From assembly GCA_950063125.1 (NCBI GenBank), contig CATLZI010000114.1, positions 1 to 6,865 of the forward strand: DNA of 6,865 nucleotides. The letters are read 5' to 3'. The DNA comes from an uncultured Porticoccus sp. (GTDB lineage Bacteria > Pseudomonadota > Gammaproteobacteria > Pseudomonadales > Porticoccaceae). Shown in pieces: positions 165 to 6,801 of the stretch. Made by a program: the position numbers and the translations under genes. The notes beneath the pieces are model-generated. The model did not search any database. It had not been told where the DNA came from and saw only the letters and a program-made list of their open reading frames with translations. How positions within the stretch are numbered: position 1 is the stretch's first letter; every line of letters starts with the position of its first letter.

Positions 165-494
165 ATGCGACGACTACTGTTACTGGCGGGCATTGTTCTC
201 GCCACATCCAGCTTCGCCGAGACAACAACAAAATCCGATCAGCCCGGCGATAGAAAAAGTTATACCGGTTCCATGTTTCAAAATATGGATACTGACCAGG
301 ACGGCAATATATCAAGAGCAGAGTATGAAGCGGGCCTCCGGAAAAAAATGGAAAAACGCATGGCCCACTTCAACGCGATGGATGCAGATGGCAATGGGTT
401 GGTGAGCAAAACCGAAGCGATGGAAGCCAAGAAGCGAATGAAAGCAGAATGGAAGGAAAAACGTCGCCTGCATTGCAATAAAGCCGATAAATAG
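165..494 (+). CDS. Small secreted EF-hand calcium-binding protein
   Basis: A 109-residue protein with two EF-hand loops, probably binding Ca2+ in the periplasm or outside the cell. A Sec signal peptide is visible: Arg-Arg at residues 2-3, a Leu-rich core, and a likely cut after S-F-A at residue 18. Loop 1 runs D42 to E53 with D42, D44, D46, G47, I49 and E53 in the canonical 1-3-5-6-8-12 positions. Loop 2 runs D73 to E84 with D73, D75, N77, G78, V80 and E84. The helices around and after loop 2 are rich in Lys, Arg, Glu and Met. The start is supported by GAGG 7-8 bases upstream. It stands alone, with a terminator-like hairpin behind it and ~390 bases to the next gene, so it is probably not part of the nitrate system. 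The family is clear; the physiological role is unknown. Confidence 0.85.
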   Translation: MRRLLLLAGIVLATSSFAETTTKSDQPGDRKSYTGSMFQNMDTDQDGNISRAEYEAGLRKKMEKRMAHFNAMDADGNGLVSKTEAMEAKKRMKAEWKEKRRLHCNKADK

Positions 495-761: not shown

Positions 762-778
762 TGGCACGGGTTATGCTT
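762..778 (+). promoter_or_regulatory. Sigma-54 (RpoN)-type -24/-12 promoter of the porin gene
   Basis: TGGCACG followed by GGTT and ATGCT matches the sigma-54 consensus TGGCACG-N4-TTGCW with one mismatch. The GG (763-764) and GC (775-776) are separated by the required 10 bases. The predicted start of transcription is about 788, only ~17 bases before the attenuator hairpin at 805. Sigma-54 promoters need an enhancer-binding activator; NtrC is the likely one for nitrogen genes. A sigma-70 reading (TATGCT as -10) lacks a recognisable -35. Confidence 0.65.
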
Positions 779-803
779 GTAACTTTTTGACACTACATCC
801 TAC

Positions 804-819
804 TGGGTAATGAAGCCCG
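804..819 (+). promoter_or_regulatory. NasT/ANTAR-type hexaloop hairpin in the porin leader
   Basis: GGGT (805-808) pairs with GCCC (815-818, closing T-G wobble) around a six-base loop AATGAA (809-814); an outer T804-G819 wobble may extend it. The loop has A at position 1 and G at position 4, the signature of RNA hairpins bound by ANTAR antiterminators such as NasT, NasR and EutV. Bases 813-819 are also the start of the downstream terminator stem, so the two structures exclude each other. A NasT gene lies ~1.3 kb downstream. Binding is inferred from motif and context. Confidence 0.75.
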
Positions 820-855
820 TGCGCGCCATCCTGCGTACGGGCTTTTTTTATTTTT
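813..855 (+). terminator. Intrinsic terminator (attenuator) in the porin leader
   Basis: A 12-bp stem pairs AAGCCCGTGCGC (813-824) with GCGTACGGGCTT (833-844), with one G-U wobble and an 8-base loop. A run of seven T (843-849), then A and five more T, follows. It sits between the promoter and the start codon at 888, so it must be read through for the porin to be made. Its 5' arm shares GCCC (815-818) with the hexaloop hairpin, the classic terminator/antiterminator switch. Confidence 0.88.
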
Positions 856-887
856 GTTTTGGGGAAAACAAACTCGAGGAATTTCAC

Positions 888-2096
888 ATGAAACCGAGAT
901 CTGTTCGACTTTCAGCTTTTGCATTACTGTTTGGCCTCCACCCTTTGCTGATGGCAAGTGCTGAAGAAGCCACCAGTTTTTCAGAAATATTCACCAAGAG
1001 TGATACCAGTTTTACTTTTCGTTATCGATTTGAGCATGTGGATGATGAAAATGCCGAAAAGAATGCCAATGCATCCACACTCAAGTCTCGTATAACCTGG
1101 ACTTCGGCCAGCTATCATGGCTTTTCCGGCTTACTGGAAGTCGATGACGTAAGCCACATTGGTGGCGAAAACTACGCGACACCCTCCAACGGGAAAGTCG
1201 GTGAATATCCCATCGTTGCTGATCCGGATGGCACCGATATCAATCAGGTCTATCTCAAGTATCAGCAAGATGGCTTTACCGGTACAGCCGGCCGCCAGCG
1301 CATTCTCCATTCCGGCCAGCGATTTGTCGGTGGTGTGGGTTGGCGCCAGAACGAACAGACCTATGACTCTGTACGGGTTCAATTGCCCATCGGGCCCGTC
1401 ACATTGGATTACAGCTATATCTGGGATGTAAACCGAATTTTCGGGCCCGATACGGGTGGCGCACAACCGCGTCGCTACGACTCTGACTCACATGCGCTTT
1501 ACCTTTCATTTTCGCCATTTGAAGGTCACAAGCTGGCCGCCTTTGCCTATCTGCTGGATTTTGACAATGCAGCGGCCAATTCATCGCAGACCTATGGTAT
1601 TGAGTACAGTGGTGCCGTTGGCCCCATCACCCTGGCAGCCAGTGCCGCCAGCCAGACCGATTATGCCGATGGACCCATTGATTACGACGCCGACTACTAC
1701 ATGGCCGAGATTGGTACAAAAATCAAAGGTATCGGTCTGGGCATCGGTTATGAGTTACTGGGCAGTGATGACGGGATGAAAGCCTTCGGCACGCCCCTCG
1801 CCACTCTGCACAAGTTTCAGGGCTGGGCGGATCAGTTTCTGGTCACACCTGCCGATGGTATTGAGGACATTTACTTCAAGATGACCGGCAGCGTTGGCAA
1901 AACCAATCTGGCCTTTTTCTACCACGACTATTCCGCCGATGAGGGCAGCGCCGACTATGGCGAGGAATATAATGCCGTGGCAAGCTACCCGATCAACAAA
2001 TACGTTGGCGTTGAGCTGAAGTACGCCAAATACGATGCCGATGAATTTTCCCAGGACACCGACAAAATCTGGTTTTCAGTCAATGTGAAGTTCTGA
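888..2096 (+). CDS. Outer-membrane beta-barrel of the alginate-export/porin-like family, candidate nitrate channel
   Basis: A 402-residue outer-membrane protein. A Sec signal peptide is clear, with a likely cut after A-S-A at residue 25. The mature part has many alternating hydrophobic/aromatic strands and Gly/Asp/Tyr-rich loops, and ends in a strand with a terminal Phe (WFSVNVKF), the signal for barrel assembly. A block around residues 135-163 (GRQR, then HSGQRFVGG and WRQNEQTYDSVR) is what I recall from alginate-export-like porins. The start at 888 is chosen over an in-frame ATG at 810 because GAGGA lies at 876-880, a signal peptide follows at once, and 810 falls inside the attenuator. The family name does not prove alginate as substrate. 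The NasT-type leader shared with nrtA points to nitrate/nitrite passage across the outer membrane (inference). Confidence 0.85.
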   Translation: MKPRSVRLSAFALLFGLHPLLMASAEEATSFSEIFTKSDTSFTFRYRFEHVDDENAEKNANASTLKSRITWTSASYHGFSGLLEVDDVSHIGGENYATPSNGKVGEYPIVADPDGTDINQVYLKYQQDGFTGTAGRQRILHSGQRFVGGVGWRQNEQTYDSVRVQLPIGPVTLDYSYIWDVNRIFGPDTGGAQPRRYDSDSHALYLSFSPFEGHKLAAFAYLLDFDNAAANSSQTYGIEYSGAVGPITLAASAASQTDYADGPIDYDADYYMAEIGTKIKGIGLGIGYELLGSDDGMKAFGTPLATLHKFQGWADQFLVTPADGIEDIYFKMTGSVGKTNLAFFYHDYSADEGSADYGEEYNAVASYPINKYVGVELKYAKYDADEFSQDTDKIWFSVNVKF

Positions 2097-2122: not shown

Positions 2123-2161
2123 ATCAGTGGCAGGCTATGATTCGACTGCCACTGATTTTTT
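2123..2161 (+). terminator. Intrinsic terminator after the porin gene
   Basis: A perfect 11-bp inverted repeat, ATCAGTGGCAG (2123-2133) with CTGCCACTGAT (2146-2156), encloses a 12-base loop and is followed by T2156-T2161. It begins 26 bases after the porin stop and should separate the porin transcript from nasT. Confidence 0.88.
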
Positions 2162-2209: not shown

Positions 2210-2821
2210 ATGACACCACCTTCAGCCAGGGACCCCATTCGTATCATGCTGGTCGATGATCATGCCGAACGATCTGCCAGTGTCGAAGAAAAACTTCGGG
2301 ATTCCGGTTTTGAAGTCATTTCGCGGCTGCCATCGGCGACCGGATTACTGTTCCAGATCGAACAGCATCAGCCAGATCTGGTATTGATCGACATTCAGTC
2401 GCCCGGTCGTGATGTGCTGGAAAGTCTCTCGGTGGTCAACCACCACAATCCGCGACCGGTAGTCATGTTTTCCCATGAGGAAGATCCCGCTTTTATCGAA
2501 CAGGCCGTGGACGCCGGAGTGACCGCCTACCTGATGGATGAGCTGAACCCGGACCGCGTCAAACCGGTTATTGATCTGGCCATTGCCCAGTTCAAGTCCT
2601 ACCAGTCCCTGCGCAGGGCCCTGGATGACGCACGCACCAAGCTTGCCAGTCAGTCTGTAATAGAAGAGGCAAAACAACTGCTGATGGCTCAACGCGGCAT
2701 CAGCGAAGACAAGGCACACAAAACCTTGCGGTCACTCTCGATGGACACCAACCAGAGTTTGCCCGAGGCGGCTCGGTCAGTGATTAATATTCTGGGAAAG
2801 CCCAGTGGCAGCGCGAGATAA
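2210..2821 (+). CDS. nasT: NasT: ANTAR-domain response regulator, nitrate-responsive transcription antiterminator
   Basis: A 203-residue cytoplasmic RNA-binding antiterminator. Residues ~10-125 form a receiver-like domain with the acidic pair D16-D17 (VDDH), acceptor-position D61 (LIDIQSP) and S88. The usual receiver Lys is not evident: after GVTAYL come Met-Asp instead of Lys-Pro. Residues ~135-196 form the ANTAR domain, with EEAKQLLMAQRGISEDKA followed by LRSLSMDTNQSLPEAA. In characterised systems (Azotobacter, Paracoccus), NasS holds NasT without nitrate; freed NasT binds hexaloop hairpins in leader RNA and prevents termination. Likely targets here are the leaders at 804-855 and 4255-4301. 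nasS follows after two bases. The ribosome site is weak (no good purine run before the ATG), and no clear promoter is seen between 2162 and 2209, suggesting low-level expression. Confidence 0.93.
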   Translation: MTPPSARDPIRIMLVDDHAERSASVEEKLRDSGFEVISRLPSATGLLFQIEQHQPDLVLIDIQSPGRDVLESLSVVNHHNPRPVVMFSHEEDPAFIEQAVDAGVTAYLMDELNPDRVKPVIDLAIAQFKSYQSLRRALDDARTKLASQSVIEEAKQLLMAQRGISEDKAHKTLRSLSMDTNQSLPEAARSVINILGKPSGSAR

Positions 2822-2823
2822 TC

Positions 2824-4047
2824 ATGCAGACAACTATCCATAAATTACCAACCGGCGAACGGCAGAATCTTAACATCGGCTATATGCGACTGAGTGACAG
2901 CGCGCCGTTGATCATCGCCCAGGAACTGGGGCTTTTTGCCAAATACGGCCTGGATGTGACGCTTTGCAGGGAGGTCTCTTGGGCCAATATCCGCGATAAA
3001 CTGATCGCCGGGAATTTTGACGCCTGTCAGATGCTGGCACCCATGCCGCTGGTGACAACGCTGGGGGCTGCGGGGATACGCGCGCCGATTGTCACTGGGT
3101 TAGTGCTATCGCTCAATGGTAACGGGATTACCCTGTCCCGCCCCCTATGGGAACAAATGGTCAATCAGTCAGACATTCCCCTGCAGCCTAACCAACCCCT
3201 GGCAAGTGCCAGGGCGCTCAAAAAAGTATTGGATAAACAGCCCAGCAACCAGACAATCACCCTCGCTACTGTCCACTCTTTCTCCACGCACACACAATTG
3301 CTTCGTATGTGCCTCGAGGCGGGCGGTATTGATCCGGATCGCGATGTCAGGGTCATCGTACTGCCACCGGAGCAGATGGTGGATAGCCTGGCTCAGGGCG
3401 TAATCGACGGTTTCTGTGCCGGTGAACCCTGGAACAGTATCGCGGTGGAATATGGTGTCGGTGTACTGGCTACCACGGGGTTCCATGTCTGGAACAATGC
3501 ACCGGAAAAAGTACTGGGTGTCATGGAGGAATGGCATACCCGCAATCCCGCCACTCACCTTCGGTTGCGGTTGGCATTGATGGAGGCCTGTCAGTGGCTG
3601 GCCGACATGGCCAATCGTGAAGCCACTGTGCAAATGTTGACTCGCCGGGATTATCTGGATTTGCCCACCAACTATTTGCGGCCATCACTGATCGGCAATC
3701 TGGTGTATGACCGCGGATGTGCGGCTGAACACCATCCGAATTTCCACGTTTTCGCCAGTTACAATGCCGGTTTTCCATGGCGATCCCAAGCGGAATTTCT
3801 TCTGCATCACTGTGAACCGCTGCTGGGCAAGGTTTTCGATCGCGAAAAAATAGTGTCTATCACGCAACAGTGTTTCCGGACGGATTTATACCGAGAAGCT
3901 GCCCGGTTGCTGGGTTACCCCACACCGGATCAGGACCACAAGAGTGAAGGGTCCCATGCTGAACCCTATTGGTTTAATGATCAGATTAAATTGGGTAGCG
4001 ATCTGATGGTATCTCCCCAGGTGCTGCAAAAAAATCGCAACGACTAA
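2824..4047 (+). CDS. nasS: NasS: cytoplasmic nitrate/nitrite-sensing partner of NasT
   Basis: A 407-residue protein of the NrtA/NasS solute-binding fold with no signal peptide, so it should stay in the cytoplasm; this separates it from NrtA. Shared family blocks are IGYMRLSDSAPLIIAQELGLF (18-38), SWAN (W53), SLNGNGIT (96-103), HSFSTHTQLLR (151-161), FCAGEPWN (197-204) and WNNAPEKVLG (K229). In the known model, ligand-free NasS binds and inactivates NasT, and nitrate or nitrite releases NasT. The start lies two bases after the nasT stop with no strong ribosome site of its own, so translational coupling and fixed stoichiometry are likely. At the MLAxxPL motif it has Pro-Met (M74), where NrtA in this locus has Gly-Gln (Q103), a possible ligand-pocket difference. 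No T-rich terminator follows the stop. Confidence 0.93.
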   Translation: MQTTIHKLPTGERQNLNIGYMRLSDSAPLIIAQELGLFAKYGLDVTLCREVSWANIRDKLIAGNFDACQMLAPMPLVTTLGAAGIRAPIVTGLVLSLNGNGITLSRPLWEQMVNQSDIPLQPNQPLASARALKKVLDKQPSNQTITLATVHSFSTHTQLLRMCLEAGGIDPDRDVRVIVLPPEQMVDSLAQGVIDGFCAGEPWNSIAVEYGVGVLATTGFHVWNNAPEKVLGVMEEWHTRNPATHLRLRLALMEACQWLADMANREATVQMLTRRDYLDLPTNYLRPSLIGNLVYDRGCAAEHHPNFHVFASYNAGFPWRSQAEFLLHHCEPLLGKVFDREKIVSITQQCFRTDLYREAARLLGYPTPDQDHKSEGSHAEPYWFNDQIKLGSDLMVSPQVLQKNRND

Positions 4048-4254: not shown

Positions 4255-4268
4255 GGGCAATGAAGCCC
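4255..4268 (+). promoter_or_regulatory. NasT/ANTAR-type hexaloop hairpin in the nrtA leader
   Basis: GGGC (4255-4258) and GCCC (4265-4268) close a six-base loop AATGAA (4259-4264) with A1 and G4, identical in loop and right arm to the porin-leader hairpin. Its 3' arm and the last two loop bases are reused by the downstream terminator, so NasT binding here should prevent termination. This is the same design described for nas leaders of other proteobacteria. Confidence 0.82.
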
Positions 4269-4303
4269 CCTGCACATAAAACCTGCAGGTGGGCTTTTTT
4301 TAT
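4263..4303 (+). terminator. Intrinsic terminator (attenuator) in the nrtA leader
   Basis: AAGCCC-CCTGCA (4263-4274) pairs with TGCAGG-T-GGGCTT (4284-4296), 12 bp with one bulged T at 4290 and a 9-base loop, followed by seven T (4295-4301). It lies 33 bases before the nrtA start codon. The GCCC at 4265-4268 belongs to both this stem and the hexaloop hairpin. Confidence 0.9.
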
Positions 4304-4336: not shown

Positions 4337-5728
4337 ATGAACAGCAATTTTCAAGACTCCCTGGTACAGAAAAGACTGAAATTTCCACAATGGATCCTGT
4401 TGACCCTGTCCTTTTTGGTCATGGGCAGTTGGGCACACGCCGAACTGGGACCGCCTGAAAAGGACGAGCTCAAGTTTGGCTTTATCAAGCTGACGGACAT
4501 GGCACCTATCGCTATCGCCTACGAAAATGGCTATTTCGAGGATGAGGGACTCTACGTCACCATTGAGGCACAGGCTAACTGGAAAGTGCTGTTGGATGGG
4601 GTTATCGACGGCAAACTTGATGGCGCCCACATGCTCGCCGGTCAGCCCCTGGCGGCCACCATTGGCTTTGGCACCAAAGCCCACATCGTTACGCCGTTCA
4701 GTATGGACCTCAACGGAAACGGTATTACCGTTTCCAATGCTGTCTGGGAGAAAATGAAAGCCCACGTACCGATGGCTGAGGGCAAACCGGTCCACCCGAT
4801 CAAAGCCGACTATCTGAAGCCGGTGGTCGATCAAATGCGGGCGCAGGGCACGCCATTTAAAATGGGCATGGTTTTTCCGGTCTCCACGCACAACTACGAG
4901 TTGCGCTACTGGCTGGCGGCCGGCGGTATTCATCCCGGCTTCTACGCACCACACAAGGGCGATACCAGCGGCAATATCAACGCCGAAGCCCTGCTGTCTG
5001 TCACACCTCCACCTCAGATGCCCGCCACCCTGGAGGCTGGCACTATTCACGGCTACTGCGTCGGCGAGCCCTGGAACCAGCAAGCGGTATTCATGGGTAT
5101 CGGGGTTCCAGTGATCACGGATTATGAGATCTGGAAAAACAACCCGGAAAAAGTCTTTGGCATGACCAAGGAGTTTACCGAGAAGTACCCGAACACCACC
5201 GCCCGCCTGGTCAAGGCCATGCTCCGTGCCGCCAAGTGGCTGGATGAAAACAACAATGTCAACCGCCCTGAAGCCGTTGAAATCCTCTCCCGTTCGGAAT
5301 ACGTCGGCGCGGATTATGAAGTTATTGCCAACAGCATGACGGGAACCTTTGAATACGAGAAGGGTGACAAACGCGACGTACCCGACTTCAACGTGTTCTT
5401 CCGTTATTTTGCCACTTACCCCTATTACTCCGATGCCGTCTGGTATTTAACCCAGATGCGCCGCTGGGGACAGATTGCCGAGCCCAAAAGCGATGAGTGG
5501 TATTTCGAGACCGCCAGGAAAGTCTATCTCCCAGACATCTATGCCACCGCAGCCAAGGCATTGATTGCCGAAGGACTGATGTCTGCGGAGGATTTTCCGG
5601 ACCTGGACAGCGAATCCGGTTTCAAACCGCCTCAATCAGAGTTTATCGACAACATCACGTTCGATGGCACGCAGCCCAACGCCTACCTGGAAAAATTTTC
5701 CATTGGTCTGAAAGACGAAACGCTCTGA
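4337..5728 (+). CDS. nrtA: NrtA: periplasmic nitrate-binding protein of an ABC transporter
   Basis: A 463-residue solute-binding protein that would deliver nitrate (perhaps nitrite) to the NrtB permease. Residues 1-35 are a Sec signal peptide with an unusually long N-region before the hydrophobic core (19-31) and a likely cut after A-H-A at residue 35. No lipobox Cys is present, so it should be a soluble periplasmic protein rather than a lipoprotein like cyanobacterial NrtA. Family blocks: [19 protein letters not shown] (47-65), NWK (W82), HMLAGQPLA (Q103), LNGNGIT (125-131), [17 protein letters not shown] (182-198), CVGEPWN (241-247), [10 protein letters not shown] (K272). GAGGT at 4323-4327 is the ribosome site, slightly far from the ATG. 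Expression should need antitermination at 4255-4303. The nitrate assignment rests on family blocks and the nasTS context; cyanate or bicarbonate relatives are less likely. Confidence 0.93.
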
Positions 5729-5799: not shown

Positions 5800-6801
5800 A
5801 TGACTGACCTTGCTGCTATTTTCAGGAATGAACAGGGAATCGCCCGCTTCTCTATCTCACAACTGAGCAGTATTGCCCGCACAGTGGGTAAAACCCTCGC
5901 CCTCCCTCTTGCTGGCATCCTGATTTTTTTAATGCTCTGGCAGGGTGTCGCCAACAATATCGATACCTCACTGGGGCAATTTCCGGGACCGGTGCAAGTC
6001 TGGGAGCAATCCAAAGGCTTGCTGGCCGAGCACCAACGGGAGCGGGAAAAAGCAGCCGCATTCTACCAGCGGCAAGAGGATAGAAATGCCAAACGGCTGG
6101 CCCAGAATCCCGATGCGGAAGTAAAAATTCGCAGCTATACCGGTAAAGCCACCTTCCTGGATCAGGTGATAACCAGCCTCTATACCGTGTCTTTCGGGTT
6201 TCTGATCGCCACAGTGATTGCGGTGCCGCTGGGCATCGTCTGCGGCTTGAGCGAAAAGGTGTACCAGTCGGTGAACCCGATCATTCAGACATTCAAGCCG
6301 GTCTCACCCCTGGCATGGCTACCGCTAGTGACGATGGTGGTATCGGCCCTTTATGTCACCGATGACCCCATGTTTGAAAAGGCCTTTCTGACCTCCGCAT
6401 TTACTGTGGCCCTCTGTTGCCTTTGGCCCACCGTGATCAACACTACGGTGGGCGTCACCAGTATTGATCGCGATCTGGTCAACGTCAGCCGGGTTCTGCA
6501 ACTGCCTTCGCTGGTGCACGTCCAAAAAATTGTTATCCCTTCCGCCATACCCATGATTTTCACCGGTATGCGGTTATCCCTGGCCACTGGCTGGATGGTA
6601 TTGATTGCCGCCGAGATGCTGGCCCAGAACCCCGGTTTGGGAAAATTTATCTGGGATGAGTTTCAGAATGGCTCATCGGATTCGCTGGGTCGCATCATGG
6701 TGGCTGTGGTGACCATTGGACTGATCGGTTTTCTGCTGGATCGCCTCATGTTGATCCTTCAGAAACGCATCAGCTGGGACAAACAGGCCATTCTACGCTA
6801 A
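5800..6801 (+). CDS. nrtB: NrtB: nitrate ABC transporter permease
   Basis: A 333-residue inner-membrane permease of the binding-protein-dependent type that forms the channel for nitrate from NrtA. Hydrophobic segments lie near residues 33-52, 126-149, 168-188, 195-215, 250-272 and 298-320, six in all. The EAA-type cytoplasmic loop that contacts the ATPase is at about 228-250 (VSRVLQLPSLVHVQKIVIPSAIP, with Ile-Pro at its end). Between the first and second segments is a long charged stretch (~70-118, rich in Glu, Arg, Lys, Gln and Ala), which makes the protein about 50 residues longer than the ~280-residue cyanobacterial NrtB. AAGGA at 5787-5791 fixes the start. It is 71 bases downstream of nrtA and probably co-transcribed with it. 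The partner ATPase (NrtC) is not in the window. Confidence 0.93.
   Translation: MTDLAAIFRNEQGIARFSISQLSSIARTVGKTLALPLAGILIFLMLWQGVANNIDTSLGQFPGPVQVWEQSKGLLAEHQREREKAAAFYQRQEDRNAKRLAQNPDAEVKIRSYTGKATFLDQVITSLYTVSFGFLIATVIAVPLGIVCGLSEKVYQSVNPIIQTFKPVSPLAWLPLVTMVVSALYVTDDPMFEKAFLTSAFTVALCCLWPTVINTTVGVTSIDRDLVNVSRVLQLPSLVHVQKIVIPSAIPMIFTGMRLSLATGWMVLIAAEMLAQNPGLGKFIWDEFQNGSSDSLGRIMVAVVTIGLIGFLLDRLMLILQKRISWDKQAILR

What the first reader, a model, noticed from the sequence alone, without database searches (positions are those of the whole stretch)
804..855. NasT-type antitermination leader in front of an outer-membrane porin gene
The sequence shows a GGGT-AATGAA-GCCC hexaloop hairpin (A1, G4) overlapping a 12-bp terminator with a long T run, 33-83 bases before the porin start. 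ANTAR leaders are described mainly for nitrate/nitrite reductase and transporter operons; control of an outer-membrane channel by the same switch is, to my knowledge, little described.
Basis: partly seen in the sequence, partly recalled or inferred. Interest (0 to 1): 0.8.

Follow-up and report, generated by a model that had tools for sequence, protein, structure and literature searches.

The report
Nitrate-sensing RNA switch runs a porin
The gene for an outer-membrane channel lies behind a conserved RNA hairpin and transcription stop that the neighbouring nitrate regulator NasT is predicted to open, and in related bacteria one hairpin base and the NasT residue expected to read it have changed together, so nitrate likely controls its own way in through the outer membrane.

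Summary
Observation confirmed; interpretation mostly holds. At 805-818 a GGGT-AATGAA-GCCC hairpin overlaps an intrinsic terminator (812-855) before an OprD-fold porin, followed by nasT, nasS, nrtA and nrtB. The same element precedes porins that lie just upstream of nasT, but only 1 of 58 porins away from nasT/nrt genes. A sigma54-type promoter precedes it. Elsewhere the porin follows nrtC and has no leader of its own. The strongest evidence is protein-RNA covariation. NasT residue 166 (EutV Glu160, which bonds loop base G4) is Glu in 88 of 93 NasT rows. I conclude a likely single-hexaloop NasT antiterminator controlling a probable nitrate porin. Binding and nitrate control are untested.

The parts
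762..777 (+). sigma54-type -24/-12 promoter TGGCACGGGTTATGCT; predicted RNA start about 788
   Evidence: score 19.3 against a 99% null of 18.65 for the best site in 330 nt; 14 of 19 porin and 12 of 17 nrtA upstream stretches exceed the 95% null. Consensus recalled; not measured
788..804 (+). 17-nt RNA 5' end before the antiterminator; no P1 hexaloop hairpin
805..818 (+). P2 antiterminator hairpin GGGT-AATGAA-GCCC (A1 = 809, G4 = 812)
812..855 (+). intrinsic terminator, shares the P2 3' arm, T-run 843-855
876..880 (+). likely ribosome-binding site GAGGA
   Evidence: read from sequence
888..2096 (+). outer-membrane porin, predicted 18-strand OprD/Occ-like barrel
   Evidence: PF13372 and PF13609 above cut-off; AlphaFold pLDDT 81; Foldseek and VIA-align
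2123..2161 (+). terminator after the porin, so the porin transcript probably ends before nasT
   Evidence: 11-bp stem 2123-2133/2145-2155 plus T-run
2210..2821 (+). nasT: receiver plus ANTAR domain; Glu166 = EutV Glu160
   Evidence: PF00072, PF03861; alignment to EutV 6wsh
2824..4047 (+). nasS: nitrate-sensor-like NMT1_2 protein
   Evidence: PF13379
4182..4197 (+). sigma54-type promoter of nrtA, TGGCATATATTTTGTA
   Evidence: score 18.1, above the 95% but below the 99% null
4255..4268 (+). P2 hairpin of the nrtA leader, GGGC-AATGAA-GCCC
4262..4301 (+). nrtA leader terminator and T-run
4337..5728 (+). nrtA nitrate-binding protein
   Evidence: PF13379
5800..6801 (+). nrtB permease
   Evidence: PF00528; TIGR01183 ntrB 159 bits, below its 209 cut-off

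Best explanation
The porin gene lies behind a hexaloop hairpin that overlaps a terminator, and this leader is likely an antitermination switch in which nitrate-released NasT would bind the hexaloop, hold P2 and let polymerase reach the porin. Shown here: the structure, its conservation, the linked nasT-nasS-nrtAB genes, a sigma54-type promoter sequence, and covariation between NasT residue 166 and loop base 4 in both porin and nrtA leaders of relatives. Inferred: low nitrogen (NtrC/sigma54) starts transcription; without nitrate NasS holds NasT and the RNA ends at 843-855; with nitrate NasT is freed (shown for Paracoccus, PMC3795266) and stabilises P2. Also inferred: NasT of this clade works from P2 alone, since no P1 recruitment hairpin is present, and the porin lets nitrate or nitrite through the outer membrane for NrtABC.
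For: Structure. Gene identities. Linkage and specificity of the leader. Stem: 2 of 4 P2 pairs change on both sides among 17 distinct sequences; covariation score 0.232 against shuffled 0.167, 0 of 500 as high. When the porin follows nrtC, 0 of 16 have a scored leader at the porin itself, while 11 of those 16 have one before nrtA (3 unscored, 2 not examined). Covariation: five NasTs without Glu166 (S, R, R, Q, S) go with 10 leaders lacking G4 (9 A, 1 C; 5 scored by script, 5 read by eye). Glu-type genomes of the same family: 14 of 14 porin leaders G4. Scan with no loop constraint: Glu 51 of 53 G4, non-Glu 5 of 5 A4. EutV Glu160 bonds G4 and E160A costs 60-fold (PMC8934654). P1 absent in 28 of 29 against 9 of 24 elsewhere, Fisher 2.6e-6. 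Porin relatives neighbour nitrate/nitrite genes.
Against: No binding, termination or expression data. The five non-Glu NasTs are one clade (99/99), so the base-4 switch is one event, and P1 loss is likewise mostly one clade. The G384 nrtA site has a weak terminator and neither covariance model finds it. The unconstrained scan scored no site in 44 of 102 leaders; of 10 nrtA picks in Glu-type family members, 2 (L256, L258) fell on another hairpin without G4. Not every stem measure beats shuffles (further pair types 498 of 500, pairs changed on both sides 88 of 500). Window NasT differs from EutV at several contacts (R142Q, K143S, K147E, Y164H, N173D, R175N, R177S). The start site rests on a recalled consensus. 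In this clade 5' hairpins of other loop types exceed shuffles (25 of 29, null mean 17.5, max 23). The porin is net acidic, and nitrate passage is inferred from neighbours only.
Confidence: 0.8

Rival explanations
1. It is an ordinary dual-hairpin ANTAR leader whose P1 is present but degenerate or of another loop type, so the mechanism is the known one.
For: L014 keeps a 3-bp GAC-ATTGCA-GTC at the RNA 5' end, and L010, L011 and L142 keep a broken remnant; hairpins of any loop size exceed shuffles in the 50 nt before P2 in this clade; the third site of this genome has, by eye, a short hairpin with a GGTAG loop 5' of P2.
Against: In the window porin leader the remnant has lost stem and G4 (GAC-ACTACA-TCC) and the 17-nt 5' end has no predicted fold; no canonical P1 in 75 nt upstream, nor in the window nrtA leader.
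Confidence: 0.2
2. The leader is a NasT switch but the porin is a general channel, swept into the nitrate regulon without nitrate specificity.
For: OprD-fold channels carry many substrates (recalled); the porin is net acidic; 32 of 59 unlinked porin loci show none of the tested nitrate/nitrite/Moco genes, the PilJ-type sensor not counted.
Against: Porins of two different groups lie in nas/nrt clusters; neighbours of unlinked relatives include NarK, NirS, a NirK-like protein, NnrS, NarI and Moco genes.
Confidence: 0.25
3. An ordinary terminator or non-NasT attenuator; the A1/G4 hexaloop is chance.
For: Strong hairpins with T-runs are common; the porin's own 3' end has one.
Against: Largely specific to nasT-linked porins, on the nasT strand, with loop base 4 tracking NasT residue 166.
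Confidence: 0.03

Closest known systems
EutV/NasR/AmiR dual-hexaloop ANTAR antitermination leaders (PMC3369931, PMC8934654)
   Same: hexaloop with A1 and G4, P2 3' arm overlaps an intrinsic terminator, ANTAR-domain regulator
   Different: no P1 recruitment hairpin in 28 of 29 scored leaders of this clade; several RNA-contact residues changed in NasT; base 4 is A or C in a lineage with altered residue 166
NasS-NasT control of nasA in Paracoccus denitrificans (PMC3795266, PMC5424462)
   Same: nasT-nasS pair, leader RNA with hairpins before a nitrate gene, NtrC-type nitrogen control
   Different: here a target is also an outer-membrane porin; in Paracoccus the target is nasABGHC and two hairpins (HI, HII) were mutated
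OprD/Occ porins (OccK, BenF-like, OccAB)
   Different: 10-15% identity in the listed Occ/OprD rows; NCBIfam Opr models below cut-off; Pfam places it in Alginate_exp/Porin_4; genomic link to nitrate

Membership tests
Dual-hexaloop ANTAR leader (definition in PMC3369931) | P2 hairpin, at least 3 bp, hexaloop with A1 and G4 | tested here: met
   805-818
Dual-hexaloop ANTAR leader (definition in PMC3369931) | P2 3' arm overlaps an intrinsic terminator | tested here: met
Dual-hexaloop ANTAR leader (definition in PMC3369931) | P1 hexaloop hairpin (A1, G4) a short linker upstream of P2 | tested here: not met
   none in the window porin or nrtA leader; 1 of 29 scored leaders of the clade, against 15 of 24 elsewhere as positive control
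NasS-NasT regulon | linked REC-ANTAR NasT and NMT1_2-type NasS genes | tested here: met
NasS-NasT regulon | NasT recognises the leader | not testable with these tools
   indirect: residue 166 / base 4 covariation in relatives
NasS-NasT regulon | nitrate induces the target gene | not testable with these tools
   needs expression data
OprD/Occ porin family | 18-strand barrel fold | tested here: met
   18 strands in the predicted model
OprD/Occ porin family | sequence model match | tested here: inconclusive
   NCBIfam Opr models far below cut-off; PF13372 and PF13609 above cut-off; no sequence match in PDB better than E 0.59

The most novel reading that the evidence does not exclude
A clade of NasT proteins antiterminates from a single hexaloop with no recruitment hairpin, in one lineage protein and both target leaders have been recoded together from Glu/G4 to Ser-Arg-Gln/A4, and the switch drives a dedicated outer-membrane nitrate porin that came under NasT control in two different gene arrangements.
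Probability: 0.5. Interest if true: 0.85.

Novelty: new variant of a known kind. Interest (0 to 1): 0.74.

Why it matters
It adds an outer-membrane channel to the nitrate antitermination regulon and points to a porin family for nitrate/nitrite, a step usually left to general porins. The EutV structure paper argues that P1 recruits the protein ahead of polymerase and suggests single-hexaloop sites for cases where polymerase sets no time limit; these leaders look like natural single-hexaloop antiterminators and make the question testable. The residue 166 / base 4 co-switch is a ready-made specificity pair for a compensatory-mutation test.

Tried and rejected
Rfam scan: no relevant family. A simple own-genome pattern for the hairpin was useless as a detector (42 hits against 32 for the reversed control) and was replaced by covariance models. 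Search for another conserved 5' element in place of P1: best 7-mer in 12 of 32 leaders against shuffled mean 6.8, maximum 9, the shuffles sampled less fully: weak, not claimed. Model R2, built from nine of the non-Glu leaders, found in the five genomes those nine sites and nothing else better than E 0.1 except their own reverse strands; it did not find the G384 nrtA site. Considered and rejected: the porin leader controlling nasTS by readthrough, because a strong terminator follows the porin in the window and in L010, L012 and L013; others (L014, L017, L029) show none that is clear. Literature: listings of searches showed no NasT/ANTAR-controlled porin or nitrate porin; 11, 26, 52 and 110 list only part of their hits; only an open-access library was searched, and the supplementary target tables of PMC3369931 could not be read. 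Papers seen: PMC8934654 passages plus sections 21, 22, 24; PMC3369931, PMC3795266, PMC5424462, PMC6759348 and PMC7261876 passages; PMC3369936 part 1 of 2; others as listings with the start of the abstract.

Full report
OBSERVATION. The window is a whole contig (C114) of a 78.5%-complete assembly; the closest named relatives are Porticoccus MAGs. Gene order on the + strand: EF-hand protein 165-494, leader, porin 888-2096, nasT 2210-2821, nasS 2824-4047, leader, nrtA 4337-5728, nrtB 5800-6801. The hairpin GGGT-AATGAA-GCCC is at 805-818 with A1 = 809 and G4 = 812; its 3' arm is part of the 5' arm of a terminator 812-845 followed by the T-run 843-855. Folding of 790-852 gives -27.4 kcal/mol, z -5.5. 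P2 is the predicted fold of the first 33 and 48 nt of RNA; at 59 nt the terminator has won.

PROMOTER. A -24/-12 site TGGCACGGGTTATGCT (762-777) scores 19.3 against a 99% null of 18.65 and would start RNA near 788, only 17 nt before P2. In nasT-containing loci 14 of 19 porin and 12 of 17 nrtA upstream stretches exceed the 95% null of 17.7; L016, L017, L020, L031 and L075 (porin) and L010, L013, L014, L031 and L075 (nrtA) do not. The consensus and weights are mine, from memory.

CONSERVATION. A script asking for an A1/G4 hexaloop overlapping a terminator within 160 nt of the porin start scored 14 of 19 nasT-containing loci (window included), 1 of 3 nrt-only and 1 of 58 others, and 0 of 1600 shuffles; L015 was too short. 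Three of the five misses (L019, L029, L031) carry it by eye. In 60 nasT regions of the same order, chosen by me as one or a few per genus out of 118 genomes with NasT, the site occurs 37 times on the nasT strand, 3 times on the other and 0 times in reversed sequence, near-copies included. The P2 alignment A2 (18 rows, 17 distinct, chosen to have A1/G4, so these two columns are invariant by choice) has 86.8% of cells paired, two of four pairs with changes on both sides, and covariation score 0.232 against 0.167 shuffled, 0 of 500 as high; two other measures do not beat shuffles (88 and 498 of 500), and the outermost pair fails in 9 of 17.

TWO ARRANGEMENTS. In the 60 nasT regions the porin is present in 25: just upstream of nasT in 9 and after nrtB(C) in 16. 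After nrtC the gap is 11-290 nt in 14 of 16, overlapping in one (L165) and unmeasured in one (L150). None of these 16 porins has a scored leader of its own, while a P2 site is scored before nrtA in 11 of the 16 (not scored in L157, L193, L195; nrtA not examined in L165, L194), so there the porin probably shares the nrtA leader. In Halopseudomonas L083 the order is leader-porin-nrtA. In the porin tree 14 of 16 rows labelled nrtC-linked fall in one group (13 of them in a fork supported 99/90, the root split weak), apart from the nasT-upstream ones, with many unlinked porins between; L143 was left out as too short, and L084, one of the 16, has only a weak nrtB match.

P1. The ANTAR target was defined as two hexaloop hairpins, with P1 needed for induction (PMC3369931, passages); the EutV structure paper calls P1 the recruitment hairpin (PMC8934654, passages). 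No canonical P1 exists in the window porin or nrtA leader. With one rule (at least 4 bp, A1/G4 hexaloop, at most 25 nt before P2) the NasT clade of the window has P1 in 1 of 29 distinct leaders (shuffled mean 0.9) and the rest in 15 of 24 (shuffled mean 0.7), Fisher 2.6e-6. Of 100 upstream stretches, 44 without a scored P2 and 3 near-copies were dropped before this count; 18 of the 44 are from the window's clade, the window nrtA leader among them. The NasT tree puts the window in the half that holds the porin-upstream loci; of the P1-bearing loci in the tree only L156 lies in that half. These counts are not independent events. L014 shows a 3-bp remnant at the RNA 5' end. In the same clade any 4-8 nt loop hairpin of at least 5 bp in the 50 nt before P2 is commoner than in shuffles (25 of 29, maximum 23), so some other 5' structure cannot be excluded.

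PROTEIN-RNA COVARIATION. The alignment of the window NasT to EutV (6wsh) maps EutV R142, K143, K147, K149, E160, Y164, R168, M172, N173, R175, R177 to Q148, S149, E153, K155, E166, H170, R174, M178, D179, N181, S183. In EutV, E160 and Y164 contact the flipped G4; E160A and Y164A lower affinity 60- and 55-fold. Position 170 is H17 F6 Y4 in the window clade against Y37 F6 H1 elsewhere. Glu166 is present in 88 of 93 NasT rows, near-copies included. The five exceptions come from one family (22 of 140 genomes with NasT; 20 of these 22 fetched). Loops, porin then nrtA: G384 Ser, AATACT, AACAAC; G418 Arg, AACAAG, AATAGA; G417 Arg, AATAAA, AATCGA; G435 Gln, AACAAT, AATAGT; G495 Ser, AATAGA, GATAGA. 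Thus 10 of 10 lack G4 (9 A, 1 C); five were scored by the unconstrained script (which labels the G495 nrtA site as porin) and five read by eye. The G384 nrtA site has a weak terminator and was found by neither covariance model. The 15 Glu-type genomes fetched from that family keep G4 in 14 of 14 porin leaders (L256 read from L031, a contig of the same length; one genome has no porin there) and in 8 of 10 nrtA picks; in the other two (L256, L258) the script picked a different hairpin, while GGGC-AATGGC-GCCC and GAGC-ATCGAC-GCTC stand in the printed stretch. The nrtA picks there have low scores. A scan with no constraint on the loop gave Glu: G4 in 51 of 53, A1 in 51 of 53; non-Glu: A4 in 5 of 5; 44 of 102 leaders gave no scored site. 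The five non-Glu proteins are one clade (99/99), so this is one switch seen in two target leaders. I read it as strong but indirect evidence that NasT reads base 4 of the hairpin in front of the porin.

REGULON. A covariance model finds three sites in the own genome: porin, nrtA, and C135:5312-5367 before a pyridine-nucleotide oxidoreductase gene that I read as NirB-like, the latter also in three same-genus genomes; it found no site in 1 of the 8 genomes searched.

NOVELTY. The switch works like the known ANTAR antiterminators but fails the dual-hexaloop definition, so I call it a new variant of a known kind. Literature searches are listed under Tried and rejected.

Noticed in passing
G000 contig C135:5312-5367 (locus L213): Third NasT-type leader (CAGGT-AATGAA-GCCTG plus terminator, sigma54-like site upstream by eye) before a NirB-like oxidoreductase gene; also in three same-genus genomes.
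   Followed up: partly
window 810-2096: The hexaloop contains an ATG (810) that is open and in frame with the porin; relatives with AACGAA loops lack it, so probably chance.
   Followed up: no
L089 (G000 contig C68): Own-genome porin paralogue, 47% identical, lies near a MoaA-like gene.
   Followed up: partly
L244:9025-9079 (nrtA leader): Loop base 4 is C (AATCGA) with an Arg166 NasT, while the porin leader of the same genome has A.
   Followed up: no
L257, L258, L243, L244 upstream of P2: Shared ACAATTTGAC stretch before P2; enrichment over all leaders weak.
   Followed up: partly
L023, L025-L027, L035, L041, L053, L067, L087 and others: Unlinked relatives of the porin sit beside NarK, NirS, NirK-like, NnrS, NirB-like or Moco genes, suggesting a nitrate/nitrite porin family.
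   Followed up: partly
window 165-494: Small EF-hand protein gene upstream of the leader, with a signal-peptide-like start.
   Followed up: no
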